A stretch of DNA of 64,000 nt from Bacteroidota bacterium (GTDB lineage Bacteria > Bacteroidota > Bacteroidia > Chitinophagales > Chitinophagaceae): positions 62,001-126,000 of the forward strand of contig JAFDYF010000100.1 in the NCBI GenBank assembly GCA_018267575.1, given 5' to 3'. The notes under the pieces were generated by a model. It did no database searches. It was given only the letters and a program-made list of their open reading frames with translations, and had not been told where the DNA came from. A program made the position numbers and the translations under genes. Each line of letters begins with the position of its first letter. Positions within the stretch are counted from its first letter, which is position 1. This document shows, in pieces, positions 13,556 to 56,612 of this stretch.

Positions 13556-14584
13556 TTGGTATCGCCTAAAGTAGCCATCGTAATCCTCAACTGGAATGGT
13601 CGCAAGTACTTGGAAGCTTTTCTTCCTTTTGTACTGCAAACTACTTATGCCAACAAGGAAGTGATACTGGCCGATAATGCCTCAACAGATGATTCCATTG
13701 ATTTTGTAAAAATAAATTTCCCAGATGTCAGCATTATTTCATTGGAGAAAAACCTGGGTTTTGCCAGTGGTTATAATGCTGCGTTGAAACTGGTGGAGGC
13801 GGATTATTATGTTTTGTTGAATTCGGATGTGGAAGTAAGTCCAGATTGGGTTGAGCCTGTAATCGAATGGATGGAGACTGACAAAAGCATTGGCGCAGCA
13901 CAGCCGAAAATACTTTCTTATGCAGATCGTGGGTTGTTTGAATATGCTGGAGCCGCGGGAGGGTGGATGGACAATTTTGGATATCCATTCGCTCGGGGCC
14001 GGGTTTTTGAAACCTGTGAAAAGGATTTGGGGCAGTATGATGATGCCGCCCCTGTTTTTTGGGCCAGTGGCGCGGCACTATTTGTACGAGCCAAAGTTTA
14101 CCATCAATTACAGGGCTTGGATGCATATTTTTTTGCACATATGGAGGAAATCGATTTTTGCTGGCGGGCACAATTGGCTGGTCATCGCATCTTCTTTTGC
14201 CCACAATCGGTGGTCTACCATGTGGGCGCAGGCACACTTCAAAAAGAGAGCAAAAGAAAATTGTTCCTGAATTTCCGGAACAACCTCATCATGCTATATA
14301 AGAACCTGCCCTTAGCCCAATCGCTTTGGAAAATACCTTTTCGTCTTTTACTGGATCTGGTTTCTGCCTTCAAATTTTTGGTAGACGGAAAACCAGCCTT
14401 GACCATCACTGTATTCAAGTCGCATCTTGCGTTTTTCTATTGGGCCCTGTTCAAAAAAAGAGTCAGTGTTTTCCCCAATGCAAAGGGGCAAAAGCTCATG
14501 GGCTGGTATAGCCAGAGCATCGTGTGGAAGTATTTTGTATCAGGAAAAAAAACTTTTACTGAAATTATTGGTAGGAAAATCTGA
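13556..14584 (+). CDS. Family 2 glycosyltransferase (rhamnosyltransferase-like)
   Basis: This 342-residue GT2 enzyme has the GT-A start VAIVILNWNGRKYLEAFLPF, the nucleotide-sugar site LLNSDVEVSPDW (DxD-like, about residue 85), and the acceptor region with MEEIDFCWRAQLAGH (about 198-212), as in WbbL-like rhamnosyltransferases of cell-surface polysaccharide synthesis. The C-terminal 90 residues contain amphipathic or membrane-associating stretches (LFLNFRNNLIMLYKNL). The best start is TTG 13556; no ATG lies close enough to keep the first beta strand. It is followed after 44 bases by a small membrane-protein gene with its own promoter. Confidence 0.87.
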   Translation: MVSPKVAIVILNWNGRKYLEAFLPFVLQTTYANKEVILADNASTDDSIDFVKINFPDVSIISLEKNLGFASGYNAALKLVEADYYVLLNSDVEVSPDWVEPVIEWMETDKSIGAAQPKILSYADRGLFEYAGAAGGWMDNFGYPFARGRVFETCEKDLGQYDDAAPVFWASGAALFVRAKVYHQLQGLDAYFFAHMEEIDFCWRAQLAGHRIFFCPQSVVYHVGAGTLQKESKRKLFLNFRNNLIMLYKNLPLAQSLWKIPFRLLLDLVSAFKFLVDGKPALTITVFKSHLAFFYWALFKKRVSVFPNAKGQKLMGWYSQSIVWKYFVSGKKTFTEIIGRKI

Positions 14585-14602
14585 TTTTTTGATTCTATAC
14601 AT

Positions 14603-14610
14603 TATTTTTG
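14603..14610 (+). promoter_or_regulatory. Bacteroidota -7 element upstream of the small membrane protein
   Basis: TATTTTTG fits the TAnnTTTG -7 consensus of Bacteroidota sigma-70 promoters and lies 19 bases before the ATG of the 69-residue protein. The upstream -33 element is less clear. Confidence 0.5.
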
Positions 14611-14628
14611 CGGGGCAACTCATTAATT

Positions 14629-14838
14629 ATGGAAGCAACAGAAGAAATAAAAGACCCCCAAACCAAAGACTTTACTTATAATTGGGTGAATTCGTCGGTA
14701 TTCCTTTTTTATTTGCAGGTGTTTTGTATCATGGCCATTACCTTAGGAGGTTGTTATAGCCTGTACACACACCGTTATAAGGGCAAACCCGAAGTGAACG
14801 TACCGGGCAATACCTTGTATACCCCTGAGTACAAATAG
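14629..14838 (+). CDS. Small single-span membrane protein of unknown function
   Basis: The 69-residue product starts at ATG 14629, preferred over TTG 14608 because the TTG lies inside the -7 promoter motif. It has an acidic N terminus (MEATEEIKDPQTKDF), one hydrophobic span (about residues 22-44, FLFYLQVFCIMAITLGGC) and a short tail with NTLYTPEYK at the end. I do not recognise a named family. The -7 motif upstream and tRNA genes downstream suggest a genuine independent gene. Confidence 0.55.
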   Translation: MEATEEIKDPQTKDFTYNWVNSSVFLFYLQVFCIMAITLGGCYSLYTHRYKGKPEVNVPGNTLYTPEYK

Positions 14839-14851
14839 TTCATAAAAAATT

Positions 14852-14881
14852 TTTGTGGGAAAGCTGTAACGCTTATTTTTG
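14852..14881 (+). promoter_or_regulatory. Promoter of the tRNA-Gly/tRNA-Leu pair
   Basis: TTTG at 14852-14855 and TATTTTTG at 14874-14881 are separated by 18 bases, a near-perfect match to the Bacteroidota promoter (TTTG, about 19 bases, TAnnTTTG). The tRNA-Gly gene begins 55 bases downstream. Confidence 0.7.
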
Positions 14882-14936
14882 CAGTCCCGGAAAAAAACGG
14901 GCAGCTCTCACAGAAGTAACTTTGAAATAGATATAA

Positions 14937-15009
14937 GCGGAAGTAGCTCATTTGGTAGAGCGCGACCTTGCCAAGGTCGAGGTGGCCGGTTCGAGCCCGG
15001 TTTTCCGCT
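14937..15009 (+). tRNA. tRNA-Gly (GCC)
   Basis: The 73-base cloverleaf has acceptor stem GCGGAAG pairing with TTTCCGC (one G-U pair) and discriminator T. The anticodon loop TTGCCAA closed by a perfect stem gives anticodon GCC, and the T arm contains GGTTCGAGCC. No CCA is encoded. It is read from the promoter at 14852-14881 and is followed by tRNA-Leu. Confidence 0.96.
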
Positions 15010-15070
15010 CTGGAAAAATTCCATTCTGAACTTTTAGGGTGGGATTTTTTGTTTGAAGCCACCCAAACCT

Positions 15071-15156
15071 GCCCCGGTGGTGGAATTGGTAGACACGCAG
15101 GACTTAAAATCCTGTGACCCGCAACGGTCGTAACGGTTCAACTCCGTTCCGGGGCA
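15071..15156 (+). tRNA. tRNA-Leu (TAA)
   Basis: This 86-base class II tRNA has acceptor arms GCCCCGG and CCGGGGC with discriminator A. The anticodon stem CAGGA/TCCTG encloses CTTAAAA, giving anticodon TAA, and a long variable arm and GGTTCAACTCC T arm are present. It is 61 bases after tRNA-Gly, with no promoter visible between them, so the two are probably one transcript ending at the terminator at 15158. Confidence 0.96.
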
Positions 15157-15157
15157 C

Positions 15158-15192
15158 AGAAGGTCACTTGTTTCGGTGGCCTTCTTTTTATT
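15158..15192 (+). terminator. Terminator of the tRNA transcript
   Basis: AGAAGGTCAC (15158-15167) pairs with GGTGGCCTTCT (15175-15185) through about ten base pairs including one G-U, followed by a T-rich stretch. It starts one base after the tRNA-Leu end. Confidence 0.8.
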
Positions 15193-15230
15193 CTCTTCCC
15201 CAATAGTTTAAGCTTATATTTAAGAAAGGG

Positions 15231-15282
15231 TCTAGCGCAAGTGCGGTAGCAAAGCAATATGTGTTGGCTATGCTTTGCCAAG
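15231..15282 (+). repeat. Dispersed repeat, half copy of the palindrome at 57739-57852
   Basis: This 52-base stretch contains GGTAGCAAAGCAAT and TGTGTTGGCTA, which recur in the complement of 57808-57852 with few differences. It lies in the 375-base spacer between the tRNA terminator and the dnaE promoter. The rest of that spacer (15283-15520) shows no gene. The repeat probably belongs to a genome-wide dispersed family. Confidence 0.55.
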
Positions 15283-15520
15283 GTCCCTGATTTTTTGAAT
15301 AGCTTGCTAGTTGATCAATAAATGGCTAAATGAGGTTTGAACTTTGGCAATCCAGTATTATAAAGATTGCCAGGATTAGAGGCATTTAGCTATTCTTTGT
15401 TTAAGCCATACTGACAACAGCCCCCAACCTTTCCATCCCAACAATCTTGATACATTAACGTTTTGGTCTTAACCCCATCTTCCCCAATCTTTTACAAAAA
15501 ACTATAAAATTTAGCATCTT

Positions 15521-15541
15521 AATACTAAATATATTAGTATT
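15521..15541. promoter_or_regulatory. Palindromic operator candidate upstream of dnaE-dinB
   Basis: AATACTAA (15521-15528) and TTAGTATT (15534-15541) form a perfect 8-bp inverted repeat around ATATA, 23 bases before the dnaE start. The position just upstream of a lesion-bypass polymerase operon makes it a plausible binding site for an SOS-type repressor. No regulator gene is adjacent, and the Bacteroidota damage box is not established, so this is inference. Confidence 0.5.
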
Positions 15542-15564
15542 TTAGTTGCCCAATAATCACATAC

Positions 15565-18561
15565 ATGTACCTCAACTGCAAGACCTTTTATAGTTTCCGA
15601 TACGGCACTTTCCCCACGGCAGGGCTTGTCAACCATGCAGAGCAGATGGGCATCCAGTCATTGGCGCTGACCAATATCAACAATACCTGTGACGCTCTCG
15701 AATTTGTGCAGCTCTGCAACGCCAAGAACATAAAGCCCATACTAGGTGTAGAGGTACGCAATGCGGACAGGCTGCTCTATATCCTGATCGCAGCGAACAA
15801 CAATGGTTTCTATTGGATCAACCATTTTATTTCAACTTATCTGTCACTCAAAAAAGATTTCCCAACAACCACGGGGGATAGCCCTTTTTTTGACAGCCCC
15901 GACGATGGCTTTGTGGTTTTCCCTTTGGGCACAAAAAAACCACAGGAGCTTTTTTTCAACGAACATATCGGCGTGAGGCCATCGGAATTGAACAAGCTTT
16001 TTGGTATGGACCTAACGGGCGCAGCAAAAAAACTGGTGGTTCTGCAACCGGTCACCTATCAGGATAAAAAAAATTTTGAACTGCACCGCCTTTTACGCTG
16101 CATCGACAAGAACATCATCGGCTCCAAACTTTTGGCAAGCGATACAGCGATGCCCGATGAATATTTCCTCCCCGAGATAGAGCTGATCCAAAAGTTCAGG
16201 CAGTACCCATTCATCATCAGCAACACGTACAGGCTGATGGATATGTGCAACATCAGCTTTGAGTTTGGGAAGGACAAGAACAAAAAACATTTCAGTGCAA
16301 GCAAGAACGATGATGTGCAACTGCTGCGGAAACTGGCCTGGGACGGGATGAAAGCGAGATATGGCAGCGGGAACAAACTTGCGGAGGAAAGGGTGAACAA
16401 GGAACTGGGGATCATCGACAAGCTTGGTTTCAATTCCTATTTCCTGATCGCATGGGACCTGATACGCTATGCCCGTTCAAGGGGCTTCTATCATGTTGGC
16501 CGTGGGAGCGGCGCCAACTCCATCGTTGCCTATTGCATGGAGATAACGAACGTGGACCCGATAGAACTTGACCTTTATTTCGAGAGGTTCCTGAACCCCC
16601 ACCGCACTTCACCGCCAGATTTCGACCTTGATTTTTCGCATGCCGACCGTGACGAGCTGATCGATTACGTTTTTAAAAGGTATGGCGAAGAGCGGGTAGC
16701 CTTGCTAGGTATGTTCACGACCTTCCAGTTCAATGCTGTTGTGAGGCAGTTGGGAAAAGTGTTCGGCCTGCCGAAGGACGAGATCGACATGTTGGGTGAT
16801 AAGGCATACCGCTATACCCAGGGCAGGGGCGATACTTTTGGTGCTGGCACTGGGACTGATACGATACAGCGGTTCATCTTCCAGTACGGCAATCTCATGA
16901 ACGGGTTCCCCGACCACATGAGCATACACCCCGGCGGCATGCTCATTGCAGAGGAGCCCATCCACAACTATACCGCTACCTACCTGCCGCCCAAAAACTT
17001 TGTGACCACACAGATCGATATGTTCGCGGCAGAGGATATCGGGCTTTACAAACTCGACGTACTGAGCCAACGTGGCCTCAGCCATATGAAGGAGACGATC
17101 CGGCTGATGCGTGAGAACAAACAGACAGCCATTGATATCCATGCGGTGGAAAAATTCAAGAAGGACCCCCGTGTGCGGGAGCAGATAAAGAACGTGAACA
17201 CGATCGGGTGTTTCTATATCGAATCCCCGGCAATGCGGCAGTTGCTGAAGAAACTGGAATGCAATGATTATATCAGGCTGGTGGCAGCCAGTTCCATCAT
17301 CCGTCCCGGTGTGGCCAGCAGCGGCATGATGCGGGAATATATTTTCCGCTACCACAACCAAGACAAGTTCCAGCACATACACCCGATGATGAAAGACCTG
17401 ATGCAGGAAACTTTTGGCGTGATGGTGTTCCAAGAGGACGTGATCAAAGTGGCGCACCATTTCGGTGGGCTAGACATGGGCGAAGCGGATATACTTCGCC
17501 GTGCCATGAGCGGCAAGTACCGGGGCAATGAACAGATGCTGCGCATACGGGACAAGTTTTTTGCGAACTGCAAGGGAAAAAACTATCCTGACGATATCGC
17601 CAAAGAAGTGTGGAGACAGATCGAGAGCTTTGGCGGCTACAGTTTTTCAAAAGCACATTCGGCTTCCTATGCCGTAGAGAGTTTTCAGGACCTCTACCTC
17701 AAGACCTACCACCCCATGGAGTTCATGGTGGGGGTGATCAACAATTTCGGGGGCTTCTATGATACCAGCCTCTATTTTTATGAGCTGATGAAAACAGGTG
17801 CCAAGGTGCAGCTTCCCTGTGTGAACAATAGTGCCTACCTCACCGACATACGTGGCACGGATGTGCACACGGGCTTCGTGCACATCAAAGAGCTGGAGAA
17901 AGCAATGGCGGAAAAAATCATTGAGGAAAGAAAAAAATATGGCAGCTATCTCCACCTACAGGATTTTATCGAGCGTACGAACATTGGCCCCGAGCAATTG
18001 AACATCCTTGTGAGTATCGGTGCCTTTAGGTTCACCGGGAAGAGCAAAAAGCAATTATTATGGGAGGCCAATTTTTTGCAGAAGAAGAATAGGTCACTTG
18101 CTCCGGCACATGCGTCGCTTTTTAATGAACGGCCAAGGGAATTTGCGCTGCCCGTACTGTCTGACAATGTGCTTGACGACATGTACGATGAAATGGAAAT
18201 ACTGGGCTTCCCTCTGCGCAACCCCTTTGAGGTGGTGGATGATGATGTTTCAAAATACCTTCCAGCCAAAGAACTGGGCAATCTGGTGGGCAAGGAAGTG
18301 ACCATGCTTGGCTATTATATCACCTGCAAAATTGTGCCTACAAAAAATAATACCACGATGGCCTTCGGCACTTTCATTGACAACAACCTCGACTGGATCG
18401 ATACGGTACATTTCCCTGATTCGTTAAGGGCCTATCCATTGCAAGGCAGGGGCTTTTACAGGATCCATGGAAAAGTGGTGGAGGATTTCAAGGCCTATAG
18501 CGTGGAGGTAAGCCACATGAAAAAAGTGGGATACAAAGAGAGAAAATATGCAAACCTATAA
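15565..18561 (+). CDS. DNA polymerase III alpha subunit, short DnaE/ImuC-like
   Basis: This 998-residue C-family polymerase is shorter than replicative DnaE (about 1160). The N-terminal PHP domain lacks the metal-binding HxH (it reads CKTFYSFRYG) and has LTNINN where LTDHG is usual, so it is probably inactive for proofreading. The polymerase core is intact: HVGRGSGANSIVAY (about 310), PDFDLDFSHADRDELIDY with the catalytic aspartates (about 351), and VMVFQEDVIKVAHHFGG (about 618). An OB-like C terminus is present. The 2-base spacing to dinB shows co-transcription, a gene pair typical of inducible translesion synthesis. Codon and base usage is clearly more GC-rich than in flanking genes, suggesting transfer. 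Confidence 0.88.
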   Translation: MYLNCKTFYSFRYGTFPTAGLVNHAEQMGIQSLALTNINNTCDALEFVQLCNAKNIKPILGVEVRNADRLLYILIAANNNGFYWINHFISTYLSLKKDFPTTTGDSPFFDSPDDGFVVFPLGTKKPQELFFNEHIGVRPSELNKLFGMDLTGAAKKLVVLQPVTYQDKKNFELHRLLRCIDKNIIGSKLLASDTAMPDEYFLPEIELIQKFRQYPFIISNTYRLMDMCNISFEFGKDKNKKHFSASKNDDVQLLRKLAWDGMKARYGSGNKLAEERVNKELGIIDKLGFNSYFLIAWDLIRYARSRGFYHVGRGSGANSIVAYCMEITNVDPIELDLYFERFLNPHRTSPPDFDLDFSHADRDELIDYVFKRYGEERVALLGMFTTFQFNAVVRQLGKVFGLPKDEIDMLGDKAYRYTQGRGDTFGAGTGTDTIQRFIFQYGNLMNGFPDHMSIHPGGMLIAEEPIHNYTATYLPPKNFVTTQIDMFAAEDIGLYKLDVLSQRGLSHMKETIRLMRENKQTAIDIHAVEKFKKDPRVREQIKNVNTIGCFYIESPAMRQLLKKLECNDYIRLVAASSIIRPGVASSGMMREYIFRYHNQDKFQHIHPMMKDLMQETFGVMVFQEDVIKVAHHFGGLDMGEADILRRAMSGKYRGNEQMLRIRDKFFANCKGKNYPDDIAKEVWRQIESFGGYSFSKAHSASYAVESFQDLYLKTYHPMEFMVGVINNFGGFYDTSLYFYELMKTGAKVQLPCVNNSAYLTDIRGTDVHTGFVHIKELEKAMAEKIIEERKKYGSYLHLQDFIERTNIGPEQLNILVSIGAFRFTGKSKKQLLWEANFLQKKNRSLAPAHASLFNERPREFALPVLSDNVLDDMYDEMEILGFPLRNPFEVVDDDVSKYLPAKELGNLVGKEVTMLGYYITCKIVPTKNNTTMAFGTFIDNNLDWIDTVHFPDSLRAYPLQGRGFYRIHGKVVEDFKAYSVEVSHMKKVGYKERKYANL

Positions 18562-46635: not shown

Positions 46636-49600
46636 TTAGTTTTCGATCTTGTGTATGATTGGCATGCTCACCGCCAGTACAAATCCGTTATTGGGGCTTG
46701 AAAAAATTTGCAGGCTACCATTGAAAATGTTGAGTCGGCTTCTGATATTTTTAAGTCCGATGCCCTCTGATTGTTCCGTAGCATCTCTCCCTTTCCCATC
46801 ATCAGAAATGATCATCTTCATAACCTCGTTTTCTGTTGAAATAAACATGCTTACTTTTTTTGCATCAGCATGTTTGATGATATTGGAGCTTTGCTCCTGT
46901 GCAATCCGGTAAATGGCTAGCTTTTGTTCTGCACTCAGTTTATTTTCTTTCAAGTGTGTTGTACTCATGCTTACCTCAATACCTATAATTTTAAGCATTT
47001 TATCCGTAAGGTTCAGCAATTGCTGCTCTAAGGTAATAAACCCAAAATCAGGAGATGCTAATACATGGGACAGTCTTCTATTTTCCTCAATCACCCGTCT
47101 GATATTATCAATGGCCGACTGGATATGGTCTAGTCTTTTGTTAGGCTGTTTAAGGGCCACCGAAAGATAAAGATTGGTGCCAGCAAGGATTTGGTTCACA
47201 TTATCGTGCAGTTCACGGGAGATGGCTGCCCTTTCTTTTTCCTGCCCAAGGATCATCGCCTTTGCGGTTATCTTCTGTTCTTCGTTTTTTTGTTGCATCC
47301 TTTCCTCCTCCAGTTTTCGGAGTTCGGAAATATCCATAATGATAAGTACCGCGCCTGAGGATATTTTTCCGTTGATGGGTGTGGCAATCATTCGGTACCA
47401 GCGTTTGTTTCCATTCAGTTCCCAAGGGTATTCATGAACAAACTGATTGGTCTGCCTAGCAAGCAAGGCTTGGATACCTTTGACAATTAACCGGCTTTCT
47501 GTTTTTTCTTCGTATTGTGTTTCGTTGGCAATTTGCTGTTGGTTTTGTGTAATAAAGTAAGGTGCTACATTGTACTCATTTTCTTCCGAAAAGGTTTTCC
47601 AGTTCTGGTTCACCTCCATGATTTTCCCATTCTTGTCTAGCAAGGCAATGCTGGCTGGCAGGCTGTTCAAAATAGTGGAGAGCCGATCGGCCAAAGATTG
47701 TTTTTCAGTAAAGCTTTGTTGCAATTCCGCTTCTGCTTGTTTTCTATTGCTGATATTTGCCATGGCACCCACCATCCGGTAGGGCTTATCATGGTCATCG
47801 AAAAGTATATACCCACGCCCCATCATATAAGCAAAGCTACCATCGGCTTTAATGAACCGGTACTCATCAGACCAAAATTCTTGTTTGCGTTTTAAAGCTT
47901 GATAAATACCGGACAAAACCCTTGCTTTATCTTCTGGGTGTATCCCTTTTTGCAATATTAGCACATCGGGGCTGTTGCTTTCATTGTGTTGACCAATATG
48001 AGGATCGTAGTTTTTGTTCCACCAAAACTGGTTGGAGCCGATCTGCCAATCCCAAATGATATCATTGGTGGCACTGGTTACCAATTCAAACCGTTCATTG
48101 GATTCTTTGATTTTTTCCTCCGCCAATTTTCGTTCTGTAATATCGTTTCTGATAGCCATGTATTGATAGGGCTTTTTATCCTCTCCCAAAAAGGGTACAA
48201 TGGTTGTTTGCACCCAATAGTGGCTTCCATCCTTTGCCTTGTTCATGATCTCGCCACGCCATATATTTCCTTTTGTGATAGTATCCCAGAATTTGGTAAA
48301 AAATGATTTGGGGTGATATTTTGAATTGATGATACTATGATGATGCCCAATCAATTCCTTGCGGCTAAATTTTGAGATTTGACAGAAATTGTCGTTTGCA
48401 TAGGTGATCAAGCCTTTATGGTTGGTGATGCTCACGATACTGGATTCGTCCAGTGCGAATTTGTAATCGGAGAGCTCTTTAAGGGTAAGCCTCATTTTCT
48501 CTTCCGCTTCGATTCTTTGGGTAACATCACGGGAGTTGATAACAATGGCTTTCACATTTTCGTCGTGCAATAAATTCATGGCAATGCCCTCAACCCAAAT
48601 ATAATGCCCCTCTTTGTGCCGATAGCGGGAAAAAATGTTGATTATTTTTCCCGGATGGGCCAGTAGATCTTGCAAATTTACTTGGGCTCTTTGGTGAAAG
48701 TCTGGATGGATAAAATGGGTGATGGGCGCTCCGATCATTTCTTCATCCTGCCTTCCGGCAAATCGTTTGGAAGCGCTTCTATAAATAATTTCGAATGATT
48801 GGTTGATGAGTATAATGATATCTGAACTATTCTCCACCAACGCGCGGAAACGTTTTTCGTTTTTGTACACTTCCGCAGTTCTGGCTTTTACTTTTTCCTC
48901 CAGCACCTCGTTCATTTTTCTAAGTTGGTCCTCCAGTTGTTTGCGCTCGCTGATATTTCTGATCATCACGGTATAGGAAAGCGCTTTTCCATTTTCGTTT
49001 TTAATGGAGCTCATTGAGCCTTCCCCAATAAAGGAGTTGCCATCCTTGCAATAATATTTAAATTCTTTTACAGCCACTTTTTTCTCTAAGGTCTCCTGTT
49101 GAAAACTATTGATTTCTTCATTGCTCAGCTTAAGAATACCCAACTCCGAAACTGTTTTGCCAATGGCCTCTGCTTTACTATAGCCAAACATTTTTTCGGC
49201 ACCTTGGTTCCAACTTATAATGCGATGGTCGGTACCCCGTGAGAGAATGGCCTCCCTAGATTGTTCAACGATGCTTGCGAGATAATCCAATTCCTCACGT
49301 TCTTTTTTTTGTTTGCTGATATCATGGTTTACGGTGATGGCGCCCATACGATTCCCTTGGTCATCACGAAGAGTAGTGATATAAGACGATACGCAAATAT
49401 GGTTTCCCGATTTGGTAATTCTGTTGTACTCGCCCGACCAATAGTTTTTTTCCCAAAGAAAATGGTTCAGTTTGTTCATGTATTCACTGGTAGTATCTGT
49501 ACGAAGCAGCAGGTTGGGGTCTTTTCCGATGGCTTCCTCTTTTGTATAGCCATACATTTTTTCGGCACCTTGGTTCCAAGTCTGGATGATGATGTTTTTA

Positions 49601-50955
49601 TCCACGGTATAAATCGCGTCATTCGATTGGTTGATTTGCCGGTTCAGGAATTCCATTTGCCTTTGAGCTTCTTTTAAGCTCGTGATATCGGTAACCGTTT
49701 CCAGTATGGCAGCAGGGTTTCCATGAGGGTCGCGGTGGAGGTACCAATGGCTAGAAAGATAAAGGGTTTTGCCTAATTTGTTTTTTTGGGTGAGTTCTCC
49801 GTACCATTCATTTTTTTTCAGTAGTACATATTCTATTTGTTCCTGAGGTACTGGAAATTCTGTGTGCAAAAGTTGGTGCAGAGATTTCCCAAACATTTCA
49901 TTTTTGCCCCAACCATAGAGTTTTTCCATGCCTTCATTCCAGATAGTAATTTTGTCGTTTTGTATTTCACGGATAACAACATGGGAATTTTCTAATAGGT
50001 CGGTATATTGTTCCAGGGTTTCATCCGACTTTTTTCGTCGGATGATTTCCTTGGTCACCAACATGGCAATGAGTATTTCAATTAGGATGGTTATGGTAAA
50101 GAAAATGTCCAAGGCTCTAAGGCTATGCTTGAATTTCTCAGCCGCCACTGCACCCTGCCGTACGAGCACTGCCCAGCCATATCCTTTTATCTGTTGATAA
50201 CCGGCGAGCCTATTCTTTTTAATGACGGGGTCGTATACTAATCCAACACTCGGCTGGCCGCTCCTTGCTGTTTGAGGATCCAATGTATCTAGAGGCGCGA
50301 GTAGGGGATCAAGCTCATGATCGGTAGAGCCGGTGACCGCTGGGTTCCTGCCGTTTACAATGTTTATGGAATTGTTTTTATTGTCTTTTAGTATGCTGCC
50401 CCATTTGAGCAGGTTTTCCATATTTAGCTGCAACACTAAAATAGCCTGTACTTCTCCTTCTTGGTTTTTGGCTGGTATGGCAAGTGCTGAGAATATCTGC
50501 TCAGGGTTTATTGGGCTTCTGAATATTTGGGTAAGATAGGGTTCCCAATTTTTGCGGACGCCTATATACCAATCCAAATCGGAGCGGTCTGCTTTTGAGT
50601 ATTCAAGATCTTTGGCAGTGGTTGCAATGGTATATCCATTGGTATCTGCAATAAATGCTGATTCTATATAGGGCAAATCATAGTTTGCTTGCTGGAGTAT
50701 ACTCAATGCATGGTTGATATTGGTTTTATTGGTCAGTGGTTGCGCGGTCGCCTGCTTTGAAATAAAATCACCGATTCCGATTAGGTGGTCAAGCCTCCTT
50801 TTAAGCATTTCGGCAGATAGGGAAGCCGTATTGCGCTGTTCTTCATACACGTGTTCGATCAATCGTATTCTAGTTTGCCAATAACTGAGGGAGGCCAATA
50901 AAAGCACGGGAGTCAATATCAAAAAAAATATCAGCGATTTTTGTCTAAGGGTCAT
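46636..50955 (-). CDS. Membrane sensor histidine kinase with seven PAS domains
   Basis: The 1439-residue protein has a first helix (about 8-27), a periplasmic Cache-like domain with SDLDWYIGVRKNWEPY (about 125-140), a second helix (about 285-305), and seven PAS/PAC units starting with YTDLLENSHVV, INQSNDAIYT, IVEQSREAIL, LVENSSDIII, LDESSIVSIT, VTSATNDIIW and ILNSLPASIA. HisKA_3 (ISRELHDNVNQILAG, His near 1249) and a HATPase domain follow. It is collinear with the 2056-residue kinase at 6400, whose PAS units 1, 3, 4, 6, 7, 11 and 12 correspond to these seven. Its partner is likely one of the LuxR-type regulators on either side. Confidence 0.92.
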   Translation of the reverse strand: MTLRQKSLIFFLILTPVLLLASLSYWQTRIRLIEHVYEEQRNTASLSAEMLKRRLDHLIGIGDFISKQATAQPLTNKTNINHALSILQQANYDLPYIESAFIADTNGYTIATTAKDLEYSKADRSDLDWYIGVRKNWEPYLTQIFRSPINPEQIFSALAIPAKNQEGEVQAILVLQLNMENLLKWGSILKDNKNNSINIVNGRNPAVTGSTDHELDPLLAPLDTLDPQTARSGQPSVGLVYDPVIKKNRLAGYQQIKGYGWAVLVRQGAVAAEKFKHSLRALDIFFTITILIEILIAMLVTKEIIRRKKSDETLEQYTDLLENSHVVIREIQNDKITIWNEGMEKLYGWGKNEMFGKSLHQLLHTEFPVPQEQIEYVLLKKNEWYGELTQKNKLGKTLYLSSHWYLHRDPHGNPAAILETVTDITSLKEAQRQMEFLNRQINQSNDAIYTVDKNIIIQTWNQGAEKMYGYTKEEAIGKDPNLLLRTDTTSEYMNKLNHFLWEKNYWSGEYNRITKSGNHICVSSYITTLRDDQGNRMGAITVNHDISKQKKEREELDYLASIVEQSREAILSRGTDHRIISWNQGAEKMFGYSKAEAIGKTVSELGILKLSNEEINSFQQETLEKKVAVKEFKYYCKDGNSFIGEGSMSSIKNENGKALSYTVMIRNISERKQLEDQLRKMNEVLEEKVKARTAEVYKNEKRFRALVENSSDIIILINQSFEIIYRSASKRFAGRQDEEMIGAPITHFIHPDFHQRAQVNLQDLLAHPGKIINIFSRYRHKEGHYIWVEGIAMNLLHDENVKAIVINSRDVTQRIEAEEKMRLTLKELSDYKFALDESSIVSITNHKGLITYANDNFCQISKFSRKELIGHHHSIINSKYHPKSFFTKFWDTITKGNIWRGEIMNKAKDGSHYWVQTTIVPFLGEDKKPYQYMAIRNDITERKLAEEKIKESNERFELVTSATNDIIWDWQIGSNQFWWNKNYDPHIGQHNESNSPDVLILQKGIHPEDKARVLSGIYQALKRKQEFWSDEYRFIKADGSFAYMMGRGYILFDDHDKPYRMVGAMANISNRKQAEAELQQSFTEKQSLADRLSTILNSLPASIALLDKNGKIMEVNQNWKTFSEENEYNVAPYFITQNQQQIANETQYEEKTESRLIVKGIQALLARQTNQFVHEYPWELNGNKRWYRMIATPINGKISSGAVLIIMDISELRKLEEERMQQKNEEQKITAKAMILGQEKERAAISRELHDNVNQILAGTNLYLSVALKQPNKRLDHIQSAIDNIRRVIEENRRLSHVLASPDFGFITLEQQLLNLTDKMLKIIGIEVSMSTTHLKENKLSAEQKLAIYRIAQEQSSNIIKHADAKKVSMFISTENEVMKMIISDDGKGRDATEQSEGIGLKNIRSRLNIFNGSLQIFSSPNNGFVLAVSMPIIHKIEN

Positions 50956-51549: not shown

Positions 51550-51677
51550 AAGCCAAGCTCACTACTTTGCCGGATGAGGTAACTGGTTTTTCATTAGTAT
51601 CAGACTTCAAAAACTATTTTCAGGACAATCTTAGTATCTACTGGTTAACTGAGTCCTTTAGCAAAGTAGTAGGGCTT
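51550..51677. repeat. Structured element C, copy 3 (diverged)
   Basis: ACTACTTTGC (51561-51570) pairs perfectly with GCAAAGTAGT (51661-51670), extended by AAGCC/GGCTT pairs outside. Inside lies GGACAATCTTAGT, shared with copies 1 and 2, and AACTGGTTTTTC near the left arm. It lies in the 1866-base gap between the seven-PAS kinase and the next regulator. The parts of that gap at 50956-51549 and 51678-51910 show no feature I can support. Confidence 0.6.
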
Positions 51678-51910
51678 GAAGCGTTCGGTACAAAGGACTT
51701 GTTGTTTTGCAAAATTGGATTTTATTAACGTGACTCTCGTAAGGTTAATAAACGTATTTGTAAAGCTGTATGGTATTTGGTTTTATCCTTTTCATTGACT
51801 TATTATTTCTACAAAAGTTGGATGAGTAGTGAAAAGGAATAGTGAATTGTGCATGTGAAAATAATTTTGAACTGCCTTTTTTGTTCATGCTGTTTATGTA
51901 AAACCTCCCA

Positions 51911-51951
51911 AAACCAAAACGACCTTATCATTGATAAGGTCGTTTTGGTTT
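51911..51951. terminator. 19-bp perfect stem hairpin before structured element C1
   Basis: The 19 bases 51911-51929 are exactly complementary to 51933-51951 around an ATT loop; it is flanked by A-rich and T-rich runs and would terminate in either direction. No protein gene lies immediately upstream on the plus strand, so the terminated transcript would be non-coding. A similar hairpin precedes copy 2. Confidence 0.7.
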
Positions 51952-51956
51952 ACGTC

Positions 51957-52341
51957 AAACTTTGCAGTAATGCTGGGCAGTTCAGGGGTTGCAAAGTTTG
52001 CGCTTGCGATAAAAATAAGCTTGGTTCTTCATCGGGGTGATATTTTAAAAAAGCTGCTTTGCCGGGCCGGTCAACTGGTTTTCAAGGATGGACTGGTTTT
52101 AAAGGGTTGGATTTTCAAATGTCTTTTTTAAAGACAATCTTAGTTGTTTGGTGTTGACAGGTCCCCTTGGCAAAGCAGCATAAAAGTCTCGGTGGTTTGG
52201 TACCGATTCTTTGGTTCTTCTGGATATTGGATCAAATGCCTTCGCATTTGTTATACAAAGAAACGACTCGATCTAAATTTAAAATGTAGAATTGTACTCG
52301 AATGGATGTAGTACTATTTCTATTTTTGGTAATCAAAATGA
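51957..52341. ncRNA. Structured element C, copy 1 (candidate structured RNA or palindromic repeat)
   Basis: About 385 bases strongly similar to 55783-56165. Three hairpins recur: AAACTTTGC/GCAAAGTTT (51957-51965 with 51991-51999), AGCTGCTTTGCC/GGCAAAGCAGC (52052-52063 with 52169-52179), and CAAATGC-CTTC-GCATTTG (52233-52250). The interior keeps AAGCTTGGTTCTTCATCGGG and GACAATCTTAGTTG. Small frames across it (51849-52131) are not conserved between copies, arguing against coding. Strand of any transcript is unknown. Confidence 0.5.
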
Positions 52342-52479
52342 TATTTGTACCCAGTAAGACCTGTTGCCCAAGTGACTGTGTTTTCAAAGCCCTGCGTTAC
52401 CATCGCTATGCTATTTGGGGTTTTATTTCCAACGAATATTTATATTAGTAGAGGATTGCTCTCGAAAATAATTATTTGA

Positions 52480-52659
52480 TCAATCTGATCCTTTGGACCT
52501 TCCTGTTTTGCTGTATTGGGCAGTTTCGGCAATGGCATGAATGACTGATTGGTTTAAATTTTGAGGAACCCATTTTTCGATGGATTCAATAGTGATGGCA
52601 ACAAATCCATAGCTTGCATAAACTTTGATTGATAAACCACATGCATCACCTGATTTTTT
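52480..52659 (-). pseudogene. C-terminal fragment of an unidentified protein
   Basis: On the minus strand a 59-codon open frame ends at TGA 52480-52482 and reads like real protein (KVYASYGFVAITIESIEKW, then HAIAETAQYSKTGR). It is preceded in frame by TAA at 52660-52662 and has no convincing start codon, so it is probably the tail of a decayed gene. I do not recognise the family. Confidence 0.3.
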
Positions 52660-52821
52660 TTACAAAAGTTGTATCAAGATTATACTAATTGCTTGAATTG
52701 CATAAATGTTTTAATAACATATAGATGTAAGATGTTGATTGTAATAGTATTTCTACATTTTCAACACTTGCAGAGTATTACTTTTGGCCATTCATAATTT
52801 GATTTCTAACCCAATTTTATA

Positions 52822-53469
52822 ATGAACAAAGGCGAAAAGGTTTTAATTGTAGACGATCATGCGATTGTTGCCAGAGGACTTAAATATTTAATTGACCTGA
52901 ATTTTTCTAATTGTCAGGTTTTTGTAACTGGCGAGATTGAAACCATGCGTAAAATGCTCCGGGAATCCCACTACACGCACCTCATTTTGGACATCAATTT
53001 GACCGATGGGAATTCGCTCGAGGTAATACCGGAATTAAAAAAAGTCTATCCCAGCCTACACATCCTGGTACATTCAATGGTTTCGGAAGAGATCTATGGG
53101 AAAAAACTGATGCAAATGGATATTTCTGGTTTCTTGAGCAAGAACAGTTCGGAATCGGAAATCATCACAGCCTTGCGCATCTTTTTTGAGGGGGAGACCT
53201 ATATCAGCAAAAACCTTCGCAAAGTATTGTTTTCTAATAATAAGGAAACTCGCGTGAGCATGTTTTCAGATTTGTCGGCAATGGAATTGAAGGTTTTGGG
53301 TATGATGTTAAAAGGTGGGAAGACCAAAGAGATTTCTGTTTCCTTGGATGTGGCACAGCAGACCATCGCTACTTACAAATCCAGGATATTCAAAAAGCTT
53401 GGCACCGAAAATGTATTTGATATCAAACGCATGGCGGAAATCGAGAACCTGACTTTTGATAATCTGTAA
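52822..53469 (+). CDS. LuxR/NarL-type response regulator
   Basis: The 215-residue protein has a receiver (KVLIVDDHAIVARGLKYLI; phosphoacceptor Asp near 56 in LILDINLTDGN; lysine in GFLSKNSS) and a LuxR helix-turn-helix (SAMELKVLGMMLKGGKTKEISVSLDVAQQTIATYKSRI, around residues 152-190). It starts at ATG 52822 after an AT-rich region with TACTTTTGG close to 52781, a possible -7 element. It is divergent from the seven-PAS HisKA_3 kinase, separated by 1.87 kb that holds two copies of structured element C, and is a candidate partner of that kinase. Confidence 0.92.
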   Translation: MNKGEKVLIVDDHAIVARGLKYLIDLNFSNCQVFVTGEIETMRKMLRESHYTHLILDINLTDGNSLEVIPELKKVYPSLHILVHSMVSEEIYGKKLMQMDISGFLSKNSSESEIITALRIFFEGETYISKNLRKVLFSNNKETRVSMFSDLSAMELKVLGMMLKGGKTKEISVSLDVAQQTIATYKSRIFKKLGTENVFDIKRMAEIENLTFDNL

Positions 53470-53651
53470 GCAAATTTTATCACTGATTATGTTCATTTTT
53501 GCAGCATCTAAAAGTTGAACCTTCTTCTATAAAAAATATCGATCCTTATTTGGTTGCCCTTGAGTAAAACGGAGCACCTTGTTTTAAATAGATTGGTCCA
53601 AAACTAAAAGGGTAAGGCATAGCTGATATAGAGCGGCTTATTATTATCAGA

Positions 53652-53867
53652 ATGGGCGAAAACCCATTATCTGATGAAATGGTAGCCTTTAAACTGCGCA
53701 TGATCAATGAACTGCTTCTGGGGTTTGAATCCCTAGACCGGTATTGTCAAGTCCATGAATTGTTTTTGATTGCCAAAAAAAGAATTTATCGGGGCAAAAA
53801 AATGTTCAATCATTATGAAAAGGCTTCCTGCTTAAACCAACTTTATTTCTTGATCAACAAAAATTGA
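53652..53867 (+). CDS. Small hypothetical protein
   Basis: The 71-residue frame begins at ATG 53652 (MGENPLSDEMVAFKLRMIN) and looks helical and soluble, with coding-like usage. No family is recognised and no ribosome-binding or promoter signal decides the case. It lies 182 bases after the response regulator, possibly in the same transcript. The 298 bases after it, to the sulfatase, show no feature I can support. Confidence 0.4.
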   Translation: MGENPLSDEMVAFKLRMINELLLGFESLDRYCQVHELFLIAKKRIYRGKKMFNHYEKASCLNQLYFLINKN

Positions 53868-54165
53868 GGATCTATTGGTTGGGGAGAACCATCACTCAAT
53901 ACCTCCGTTTAATAGTTCGATGGCCAACAAGCAATCTCGCAAGCATTCACTAATTTGTTTTATTTTTGAATCGATAAGGGGTTTGGTATAAAGCATGTTT
54001 ATCAAACCAAAACATGGCGACCTCAGTTGTTTCCTCTATATTAACACCTAGTTATTTTTAGTTCTGTCGGTTGGTAGTATGCTCAATTCGAAAACAGATA
54101 GCCCGATTGCTATTAGGTTCATTCAAACGAAGCCGATTTTTTTTTCTTTTTAAAATAAAGATGAA

Positions 54166-55704
54166 ATGGTTAAGATAAGTCTTGTTTTTTTTCTTTCGTT
54201 TTTGGTCATCAGCAGTCTCGCCCAAACACCCAACACAAAAAGGGCAAGTAAACCAAATATTGTTATTATTTATGCAGATGACTTGGGCTTTGGGGATCTG
54301 AGTTGTTATGGTATGAAGCGGATAGCAACACCGAACATCGATCGCTTGGCAAAAGACGGATTGAAGTTTATGGATGCCCATGCCACTTCCTCCACCTGTA
54401 CCCCTTCCAGATATGCCCTGATTACGGGGAGGTATCCTTGGCGGCAGAATGGTACAGGAGTGGCTCCAGGCGATGCATCACTGATCATCCCCATGGATAA
54501 GGGTACTATTGCTTCTACGCTGCATCAAGCAGGTTATGAAACCGCGGTGATTGGGAAATGGCATCTGGGACTTGGCGGTAAGGAAGGAATCGACTGGAAC
54601 GAACAAATCAAACCAGGGCCTAACGAAATTGGTTTTGATTATTCTTTTATTATGCCTGCCACTTTGGACAGAGTGCCTTGTGTATATGTAGAAAATGGGC
54701 GGGTCGTGAACCTAGATCCGAAAGATCCGATCACTGTAAACTACAAACATAAAGTGGGGAACGATCCTACAGGCAAAGAAAACCCCGAGATGCTGAAACT
54801 AAAGCCCGACCCGAATCAGGGGCATAATCAAACCATTGTGGATAGCATCAGCAGGATTGGGTGGATGAGCGGTGGTCACAGTGCTTATTGGCGGGATGAG
54901 GATATTGCAGCCACTATTACCGACAAAACCATCCAGTTTATTGAAAGGAATGCACAACAGCCCTTTTTTGTTTATTTTGCTTCGGGTGATATCCATGTGC
55001 CGCGTTATCCCAATAGCATGTTCCGTGGCAAAAGCGGAATGGGCTTAAGAGGGGATGCCATTCTGGAATTGGATTATTCCGTGGGTCGATTAATAAAAGC
55101 GTTGGATAGCTTGAAACTCACCGATAACACCTTGGTGATTTTTAGTAGTGATAATGGTCCCGTACTTAACGATGGCTATTTGGATCAGGCCGTGGAATTG
55201 GTTGGTGACCATAAACCAGCAGGCCCACTTCGTGGTGGGAAATACAGCATTTTTGAAGGTGGCACAAGGATACCCTTTATTGTGAAGTGGCCTGGGCATG
55301 TAAAGCCTTCTACGGTTACCCATGCATCTATTAGTCAAGTGGATCTTTTTGCGAGCTTAAACCGGTTGGTTGGGCAAAAACTAAAAGAGGAAGATGCCCC
55401 CGATAGTTATGATCTCTTGTCTGCCTTATTGGGAAGAGACCCAAAAGGGCGGGATTATATTATTGAGCAATCCTCGGGCCTAGCCATTATGAAAGGTCAA
55501 TGGAAATATATAGTGCCCAATAAAAAAACTTCCTATGACCCGTTCACTCAAACAGAAACTGGCAATCTGCCCCAACCCCAACTCTATGACCTAAAAAATG
55601 ATTTGGGCGAAAAAAACAATCTGGTTGAAAAAAAGCCTGCTATAGCTAAGGAATTATCTGCTATTTTGGATAAATCCAAAGGTTTTGAAAAAACCCGAAA
55701 TTGA
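54166..55704 (+). CDS. Secreted arylsulfatase-type sulfatase
   Basis: The 512-residue enzyme has a signal peptide (about 1-19, ending SLAQ) and sulfatase family S1 motifs: PNIVIIYADDLGFGDLSCYG with the calcium aspartates (about 29-48), STCTPSRYALITGRYPWR (about 75-92), whose cysteine in CTPSR is converted to formylglycine, and GKWHLG (about 130). It removes sulfate esters from carbohydrates or aryl compounds outside the cytoplasm. No anaerobic maturase or FGE gene is in the window. The start is ATG 54166; an earlier ATG at 54161 stops after four codons. A hairpin terminator follows at 55744. Confidence 0.92.
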   Translation: MVKISLVFFLSFLVISSLAQTPNTKRASKPNIVIIYADDLGFGDLSCYGMKRIATPNIDRLAKDGLKFMDAHATSSTCTPSRYALITGRYPWRQNGTGVAPGDASLIIPMDKGTIASTLHQAGYETAVIGKWHLGLGGKEGIDWNEQIKPGPNEIGFDYSFIMPATLDRVPCVYVENGRVVNLDPKDPITVNYKHKVGNDPTGKENPEMLKLKPDPNQGHNQTIVDSISRIGWMSGGHSAYWRDEDIAATITDKTIQFIERNAQQPFFVYFASGDIHVPRYPNSMFRGKSGMGLRGDAILELDYSVGRLIKALDSLKLTDNTLVIFSSDNGPVLNDGYLDQAVELVGDHKPAGPLRGGKYSIFEGGTRIPFIVKWPGHVKPSTVTHASISQVDLFASLNRLVGQKLKEEDAPDSYDLLSALLGRDPKGRDYIIEQSSGLAIMKGQWKYIVPNKKTSYDPFTQTETGNLPQPQLYDLKNDLGEKNNLVEKKPAIAKELSAILDKSKGFEKTRN

Positions 55705-55743
55705 TTGGTTCAAACTATTTGAGTGAAGCATCTATCAAAATAC

Positions 55744-55777
55744 AAACCGCCTTTCAGTGACAAGGCGGTTTTGTTTT
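55744..55777 (+). terminator. Terminator after the sulfatase
   Basis: AAACCGCCTT (55744-55753) and AAGGCGGTTT (55762-55771) form a perfect 10-bp stem with an 8-base loop, followed by TGTTTT. It lies 40 bases after the sulfatase stop and six bases before structured element C2. Confidence 0.8.
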
Positions 55778-55782
55778 AGGCT

Positions 55783-56165
55783 AAACTTTGCATAATGCAT
55801 AGGGCGGTTCAGAGGCAGCAAAGTTTGCGCTTGCAAAAAAATAAGCTTGGTTCTTCATCGGGATCACATTTTTAAAAAGCTGCTTTGCCGGGCCGGTCAA
55901 CTGGTTTTTCAAGGACGGACTGGTTTTCAAGGATTGGACTTTCAAATGTCTTTTTTAGAGACAATCTTAGTTGGACAATTGTTGACTGGTTCCTTTGGCA
56001 AAGCAGCACAAAGTCTCGGTAGTTTACTCCGATCTCTGGGTCTTCTGGATATTGGACTAAATGCCTTTCGCATTTGTGATACAAAGTAAAGGCTTGGATG
56101 AAATTCTGTATGTAGAATTGCGCTTGATGTGTTGTAGTACTATTTCTATTTTTTGCTTTTAAAAT
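55783..56165. ncRNA. Structured element C, copy 2
   Basis: This 383-base stretch parallels 51957-52341 along its length. Pairing arms are AAACTTTGC/GCAAAGTTT (55783-55791 with 55818-55826), AAGCTGCTTTGCC/GGCAAAGCAGC (55877-55889 with 55997-56007) and AAATGC/GCATTT (56059-56064 with 56070-56075; the loop has one base more than in copy 1 while the stem is kept). It ends in GTAGTACTATTTCTATTTTT like copy 1. It begins right after the sulfatase terminator. Confidence 0.5.
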
Positions 56166-56381
56166 GGAGTTTTTACTGTGCCAATTCGGTTCACTATTTG
56201 GATTAAAGTCCTGATGCCAGGTAAGGCTTTTTTTGAACAGTCAGACCCTATAGGTGAACTTTGTTTTTGGGTATGTGAAGCGTATAATATCGGTCTATTG
56301 GGCTGATTTAATTGGTCAACTGTATTCAAATGGGGCAAAATTGAAGGGGGAATATGGGTTTGAGATTAAAAATGATTCTAC

Positions 56382-56612
56382 GTCGCAGCGGGTTCTGGCG
56401 CAGCCGACCCCGCGTTATATGAGGTTTGTACCAACTGGCGCGGATATGCAGCCATGCCAGGTGTTTGCGTATCCGTGCCAAGCTAAGCGAGGCTTAACTG
56501 CCAACCACTTTGATTTTCTAAGCCCAGTGGGATCTGGCGAAAGTCCTAAACTTTGGAAAAGATTAGCCCAACTTATTTATGTGGGGTCGGCTGCGCTAGA
56601 CCCCGCTGCGAC
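56382..56612. mobile_element. 231-base element with 30-bp terminal inverted repeats (MITE-like)
   Basis: The 30 bases at 56382-56411 match the complement of 56583-56612 at 28 positions. Between them is an R3 repeat in reverse orientation (AACTGGCGCGGATATGCAGC at about 56433). There is no transposase and I see no clear target duplication. A frame crossing it (56254-56637) is not supported as a gene. A partial copy of the terminal sequence is at 57685-57710. It may be a non-autonomous element or a recombination site. Confidence 0.5.

What the first reader, a model, noticed from the sequence alone, without database searches (positions are those of the whole stretch)
51550..56165. Three-copy structured element (C) with a compensatory stem change
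The sequence shows copies at 51957-52341 and 55783-56165 that align over about 385 bases, plus a diverged third at 51550-51677. The central hairpin is CTGCTTTGCC/GGCAAAGCAG in copies 1 and 2 but CTACTTTGC/GCAAAGTAG in copy 3, a G-to-A and matching C-to-T change that keeps pairing. The AAATGC/GCATTT hairpin keeps its stem while the loop changes length. GACAATCTTAG is kept in all three. Copies 1 and 2 each follow a strong terminator hairpin by about six bases. Covariation favours a structured RNA or a palindrome under selection over chance; a role in regulation of the adjacent two-component genes is inference.
Basis: seen in the sequence. Interest (0 to 1): 0.75.

Follow-up and report, generated by a model that had tools for sequence, protein, structure and literature searches.

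The report
Response-regulator-linked multicopy small RNA genes
The repeats look like copies of a previously undescribed ~340-base structured regulatory RNA, made from the opposite DNA strand, whose start signals are the same ones that sit in front of a neighbouring sensor-response gene, which suggests that this signalling protein switches on itself and a small family of RNAs.

Summary
Copies c1 and c2 match at 82% over 437 bp, including the terminator hairpin, and c3 shares the central hairpin. I found a fourth, diverged copy (c4) elsewhere in the genome, directly upstream of a paralogue (82% aa identity) of the LuxR/NarL-type response regulator (RR1) next to c1. Across the four copies the central helix keeps 92% of its pairs with 7 compensated pairs; a second hairpin keeps its loop (CCYCTGAAC) while 3 pairs of its stem are replaced. 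A covariance model finds exactly these four places in 4.96 Mb, and none in about 400 same-family genomes; Rfam has no match.

The strand is minus. The right ends of c1, c2 and c4 carry TTCTACA-N21-TNNYTTTG, the promoter architecture and spacing also found before RR1 and RR2. Of six exact matches in the genome, five are these sites; the sixth is inside a coding sequence. On the minus strand each RNA ends in a terminator hairpin. An operator-like 18-nt motif recurs at the same five places.

Best reading: a response-regulator-driven multicopy sRNA circuit, resembling Gac/Rsm or LisRK/LhrC in layout. It is not a Csr/Rsm sponge: no CsrA gene, no GGA enrichment. Transcription, RR binding and targets are inferred, not shown.

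The parts
51905..52250 (-). c1: predicted structured sRNA gene, about 346 nt, start near 52250, end at the terminator
   Evidence: Promoter at its 5' end, terminator at its 3' end; fold z = -8.8 on the minus strand against dinucleotide shuffles
52256..52291 (-). c1 promoter: TTCTACA-N21-TTTCTTTG (-7 box like Bacteroidota TAnnTTTG)
52307..52324 (.). c1 distal operator-like motif TGTAGTACTATTTCTATT, a fixed 31 nt (TAGAAATA start to TTCTACA start) from the proximal TTCTACA
52050..52182 (-). c1 central hairpin, loop holding CTAAGATTGTC and AAAACCAGTT
   Evidence: 7 compensated pairs over four copies; covariance model match
51953..52003 (-). c1 second hairpin AAACTTTGC/GCAAAGTTT with conserved loop CCYCTGAAC
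   Evidence: 3 compensated pairs against c4
51911..51951 (.). c1 bidirectional terminator hairpin (20 bp arms)
   Evidence: stem compensated against c2/c4
55735..56076 (-). c2: predicted sRNA gene, about 342 nt, convergent with the sulfatase gene (54166-55704) and sharing its terminator
56082..56117 (-). c2 promoter: TTCTACA-N21-TTACTTTG
56133..56150 (.). c2 distal operator-like motif
55876..56009 (-). c2 central hairpin
55779..55830 (-). c2 second hairpin with conserved loop CCYCTGAAC
55744..55771 (.). c2 bidirectional terminator hairpin
   Evidence: found on both strands
51558..51676 (-). c3: diverged third copy, central hairpin with an extended stem and T5 on the minus strand; its promoter looks decayed
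   Evidence: no TTCTACA-N21-TTTG match there
51796..51813 (.). c3 degenerate operator-like motif TGACTTATTATTTCTACA
52740..52757 (.). operator-like motif TGTAATAGTATTTCTACA before the response-regulator gene (exact match, TGTA-N10-TACA)
52751..52786 (+). RR1 promoter TTCTACA-N21-TACTTTTG
   Evidence: same spacing before the paralogue on contig C12
52822..53469 (+). RR1: response regulator, receiver + LuxR-type (GerE) HTH, 215 aa
   Evidence: Pfam; nearest NCBIfam model UvrY/SirA/GacA, below cut-off

Best explanation
The repeats are paralogous genes for one structured small RNA, transcribed from the minus strand. Each runs from a promoter at its right end, through a short 5' segment (TCCAATATC), a long central hairpin with a large mostly open loop (CTAAGATTGTC, AAAACCAGTT) and a second hairpin with a fixed loop (CCYCTGAAC), to an intrinsic terminator. 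The promoters share with the response-regulator genes RR1 and RR2 a TTCTACA box exactly 21 nt before a Bacteroidota-type -7 box, plus a nearby 18-bp operator-like motif. The most likely mechanism: a LuxR/NarL-type response regulator, phosphorylated by its sensor kinase, binds these sites, activates its own gene and switches on the RNAs, which then act in trans. They would act by base pairing through the conserved single-stranded segments and the repeated AACCA motif, or by binding a protein such as one of the four RRM proteins. Shown by computation: the four copies, their structure and covariation, the shared promoter architecture and its rarity. Inferred: transcription, the identity of the bound regulator, activation rather than repression, and trans action. 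The target is unknown; nearby sulfatase, fucosidase and sugar-transport genes suggest glycan use, which is only a hint.
For: Covariation: central helix 91.7% paired over four copies, 7 pairs changed on both sides, 0-2 of 500 shuffles as high, slid controls 16-43%; second hairpin 3 compensated pairs; terminator stem 2. Copy number: the model R1 finds only c1-c4 in the genome. Promoter: exact TTCTACA-N21-TNNYTTTG occurs 6 times in 4.96 Mb; 5 are c1, c2, c4 (minus) and RR1, RR2 (plus), the sixth is in a coding frame; 0 expected in window shuffles. Operator motif: the only sites with at most one mismatch in the genome are these five. Spacing of the distal motif is 31 nt in c1, c2 and c4 (read). 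Terminators on the minus strand. Association with RR kept at both paralogous loci. Not coding: longest ATG ORFs 35, 43 and 18 aa, unrelated. The genome has four RRM proteins.
Against: No transcript data. Folding does not settle the strand: c2 folds better on plus, c1 and c4 on minus, and wobble pairs in the central helix split 3 to 2. The -7 boxes of the RNA genes have T instead of A at position 2 (TTNCTTTG). The promoter pattern was written after seeing the sites, so its rarity is partly post hoc; c1 and c2 are not independent. No homologues outside this genome, so the covariation rests on four paralogues. That the RR itself binds the motif is inference from its position only.
Confidence: 0.66

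Rival explanations
1. The RNAs are real minus-strand sRNA genes, but the shared TTCTACA-N21 promoter is read by an alternative sigma factor or another transcription factor, so the RR gene and the RNAs are co-regulated targets and the RR is not their regulator.
For: The same box stands in the -33 region of all five promoters; no binding was tested.
Against: The motif is confined to the RR genes and the RNAs, which fits an autoregulated dedicated regulator better than a sigma factor with a wider regulon; the -7 box looks like the primary sigma consensus TAnnTTTG (PMC7366714, PMC9723704).
Confidence: 0.17
2. Plus-strand RNA or cis-acting leader: the structures lie in untranslated RNA read towards the RR or downstream genes.
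For: Two wobble pairs in c2 and better fold scores of c2 and c3 on plus.
Against: RR1 has its own promoter about 400 nt downstream of c1; c2 and c4 lie right after terminators of upstream genes, and c2 precedes no clear gene; no shared promoter on the plus side of the copies.
Confidence: 0.08
3. DNA-level element: decayed mobile element (MITE-like) or cluster of palindromes, with no RNA function.
For: Several copies in one locus, none in relatives.
Against: Only four copies, all at the two RR loci; no terminal inverted repeats or target-site duplications seen; compensated stems with conserved single-stranded loops; no plasmid or phage match.
Confidence: 0.06

Closest known systems
GacS/GacA - RsmX/Y/Z sRNAs of Pseudomonas
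   Same: A LuxR/NarL-type response regulator with an 18-bp TGTA...TACA operator before multicopy sRNA genes, and an apparent regulon made up mostly of the sRNAs (operator TGTAAG-N6-CTTACA from PMC4950607; GacA acting exclusively through RsmY/RsmZ as stated in PMC4132741).
   Different: No CsrA/RsmA gene in this genome and GGA not enriched in the RNA, so not an Rsm-type sponge; the internal operator letters differ; the GacA likeness of RR1 is generic, since another RR in the window scores higher on the same model; here the RR gene itself carries the operator.
LisRK - LhrC1-5 of Listeria monocytogenes
   Same: Multicopy sRNA fully dependent on a two-component system, with a conserved element upstream of -53 in the promoter (PMC4132741).
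   Different: Different phylum and unrelated regulator context; no sequence relation was seen (no Rfam match); the copies here lie next to the RR genes.
FopS/GibS sRNAs of Bacteroides thetaiotaomicron
   Same: Same phylum, family of paralogous sRNAs, RRM protein RbpB as partner (PMC11697453); this genome also has four RRM proteins.
   Different: FopS has 14 members on canonical sigma-ABfr promoters and is widespread in Bacteroidaceae; that paper names no response regulator for it; sequence likeness to FopS was not tested.

Membership tests
Two-component-controlled multicopy sRNA (functional kind) | Several paralogous noncoding RNA genes with conserved structure | tested here: met
   Four copies, compensated helices, no conserved ORF; transcription itself not shown
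Two-component-controlled multicopy sRNA (functional kind) | Each gene has a promoter with a shared regulator site | tested here: met
   c1, c2, c4 yes; c3 decayed
Two-component-controlled multicopy sRNA (functional kind) | The response regulator binds the site and drives transcription | not testable with these tools
   Needs EMSA and deletion strains; only the shared motif before RR1 and RR2 is seen
Csr/Rsm sponge RNAs (RsmX/Y/Z, CsrB/C) | CsrA/RsmA protein in the genome | tested here: not met
   PF02599 absent, controls positive
Csr/Rsm sponge RNAs (RsmX/Y/Z, CsrB/C) | Enriched GGA motifs in loops | tested here: not met
   2, 2 and 1 GGA against 3.6, 4.1 and 3.2 expected
Csr/Rsm sponge RNAs (RsmX/Y/Z, CsrB/C) | GacA operator TGTAAG-N6-CTTACA | tested here: inconclusive
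   TGTA-N10-TACA frame exact before RR1 and RR2, partial at the RNA genes; inner letters differ
Any Rfam family | Match above gathering score | tested here: not met
   No sRNA-family match on either strand at gathering threshold; nothing credible at relaxed threshold
FopS/GibS family | R1 seed sequence and RbpB binding | not tested
   Seed letters not at hand; binding needs experiment
MITE / transposon remnant | Terminal inverted repeats, target-site duplication, dispersed copies | tested here: not met

The most novel reading that the evidence does not exclude
A Gac/Rsm-like closed circuit in a bacterium without CsrA: a response regulator whose only recognisable direct targets are its own genes and a lineage-specific family of ~340-nt structured RNAs, which act through a new protein partner (perhaps an RRM protein reading the repeated AACCA motif) or multi-seed base pairing.
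Probability: 0.3. Interest if true: 0.75.

Novelty: new variant of a known kind. Interest (0 to 1): 0.57.

Why it matters
In the papers found here no Bacteroidota sRNA is tied to a response regulator (the library is partial). If true, this links two-component signalling to a multicopy structured RNA in a genome without CsrA, gives exact promoters, operators and transcript ends to test, and shows that such circuits can arise in a single lineage.

Tried and rejected
BLASTN and covariance-model searches for copies in relatives: only short chance matches, inspected and rejected. Orthologues of RR1 in relatives and GTDB: best 42% and 38%, so not orthologues; no synteny to use. Further operator hits in the genome with two mismatches: those read lie in coding sequence or lack the hairpin. 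Csr/Rsm sponge: rejected. Plasmid, phage and viral collections: none. Small protein: frames not conserved; the 80-aa plus-strand ORF in c2 is broken in c1 by an indel. Strand from folding energy: inconclusive.

Full report
OBSERVATION. c1 and c2 are real and align at 82% over 437 nt, 51909-52340 against 55735-56166, with the terminator hairpin inside the repeat. c3 (51558-51676) shares the central hairpin and further short blocks. All quoted stem and loop differences are in the sequence, except that the AAATGC/GCATTT hairpin exists only in c1 and c2.

A FOURTH COPY. BLASTN alone found nothing else in the 4.96 Mb genome. The response regulator RR1 (52822-53469; receiver plus LuxR-type HTH) has an 82% identical paralogue RR2 on contig C12. 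Directly upstream of RR2 lies c4 (L082:9371-9795), with the same order of parts but only short stretches of identity. A covariance model built from the four central hairpins returns exactly four places in the genome. Its E-values for these are not independent evidence because they are its training set; the informative result is that nothing else scores.

STRUCTURE. In a sequence-only alignment, the central helix has 91.7% of cells paired, 7 pairs with changes on both sides, covariation above all 500 shuffles, and slid controls at 16-43%. The second hairpin keeps its loop CCYCTGAAC while three stem pairs are replaced in c4 (21 of 500 shuffles reach this with three sequences, so it is supporting only). 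The terminator stem has two compensated pairs (weak on its own). Rfam gives no sRNA family for the copies.

STRAND AND PROMOTER. The fold energy does not decide the strand, nor do wobble pairs in the central helix, 3 for minus and 2 for plus. Signals do. On the minus strand at the right end of c1, c2 and c4 there is TTCTACA-N21-TTNCTTTG; before RR1 and RR2 on their own strand there is TTCTACA-N21-TACTTTTG. The -7 boxes resemble the Bacteroidota consensus TAnnTTTG (PMC7366714, PMC9723704); the RNA genes deviate at the second position. Exact matches to the common pattern number six in the genome: these five and one inside a long coding frame. Window shuffles give none. The pattern was defined from these sites, so the weight lies in the identical spacing in two otherwise unrelated sets of promoters and in the divergence of the 21-nt spacers. 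Upstream, an 18-nt motif TGTAnTAnTATTTCTAyA recurs; the only sites in the genome with at most one mismatch are again these five. In c1, c2 and c4 it lies at a constant 31 nt from TTCTACA (read). At the left end, the minus strand has terminator hairpins followed by T-rich tracts; c4 has T8. The central hairpin of c1-c3 is itself followed by T5-6 on this strand.

NOT CODING, NOT MOBILE. The longest ORFs on the predicted RNAs are 35, 43 and 18 aa and unrelated. The flanks show no target duplication or terminal inverted repeats. No copies were found in plasmids, phages or viral contigs.

MECHANISM. The simplest model is a response regulator that activates its own gene and a set of paralogous structured RNAs. 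Binding by RR1/RR2 is inferred from the motif's restriction to their own promoters and the RNA genes. The RNAs carry conserved open segments (TCCAATATC in c1, c2, c4; AAAACCAGTT in all four; CTAAGATTGTC in c1-c3) and an excess of AACCA (6, 4 and 3 against 0.9, 0.6 and 0.6 in mononucleotide shuffles), candidates for seeds or a protein-binding repeat. The genome has no CsrA but four RRM proteins, the protein class that partners the FopS sRNAs of Bacteroides (PMC11697453). Both loci lie near sulfatases; C12 also has an alpha-L-fucosidase and a sugar transporter, so glycan use is a possible theme, unproven.

COMPARISON. The layout resembles GacA-RsmX/Y/Z and LisRK-LhrC. It fails two defining features of the Csr/Rsm class (CsrA, GGA), so it works like, but is not, an Rsm system. 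The nearest NCBIfam model for RR1 is UvrY/SirA/GacA at 98.8 bits against a cut-off of 280, and another RR in the window (33% identical to RR1) scores higher on it, so this likeness means little. The RNA family appears confined to this genome: none in 198 relatives or in 396 genomes of the family, with strict filters that can lose weak matches.

LIMITS. Four paralogues are few for covariation; no expression data exist here; regulator identity, direction of control and targets are inference.

Noticed in passing
window 56382-56411 and 56583-56612: GC-rich inverted repeat, 30 nt, 93% complementary, 171 nt between the arms; a related 26-35 nt stretch occurs at L128, so it may be a separate dispersed repeat.
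   Followed up: partly
c1, c2, c4 minus strand (L082 about 9489; window about 52030 and 55855): CCRATGAAGAA is kept in all three copies between the two hairpins; it contains ATG AAG but the reading frames diverge at once. A tiny leader peptide cannot be excluded.
   Followed up: partly
L082:9409-9419 and 10105-10115: Identical 11-mer TTCTACCAAGC near the c4 terminator and in the RR2 promoter spacer.
   Followed up: no
window 46636-50955: 1439-aa histidine kinase with a dCache domain, many PAS domains and HisKA_3, divergent from c3/c1/RR1; HisKA_3 kinases usually pair with LuxR-type regulators, so it may be the sensor of RR1.
   Followed up: no
L082:10814-13885 and 13972-17058: Two ~1025-aa sensor kinases (Reg_prop, HATPase) after RR2; the first overlaps the RR2 stop codon, so it is the likely partner of RR2.
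   Followed up: partly
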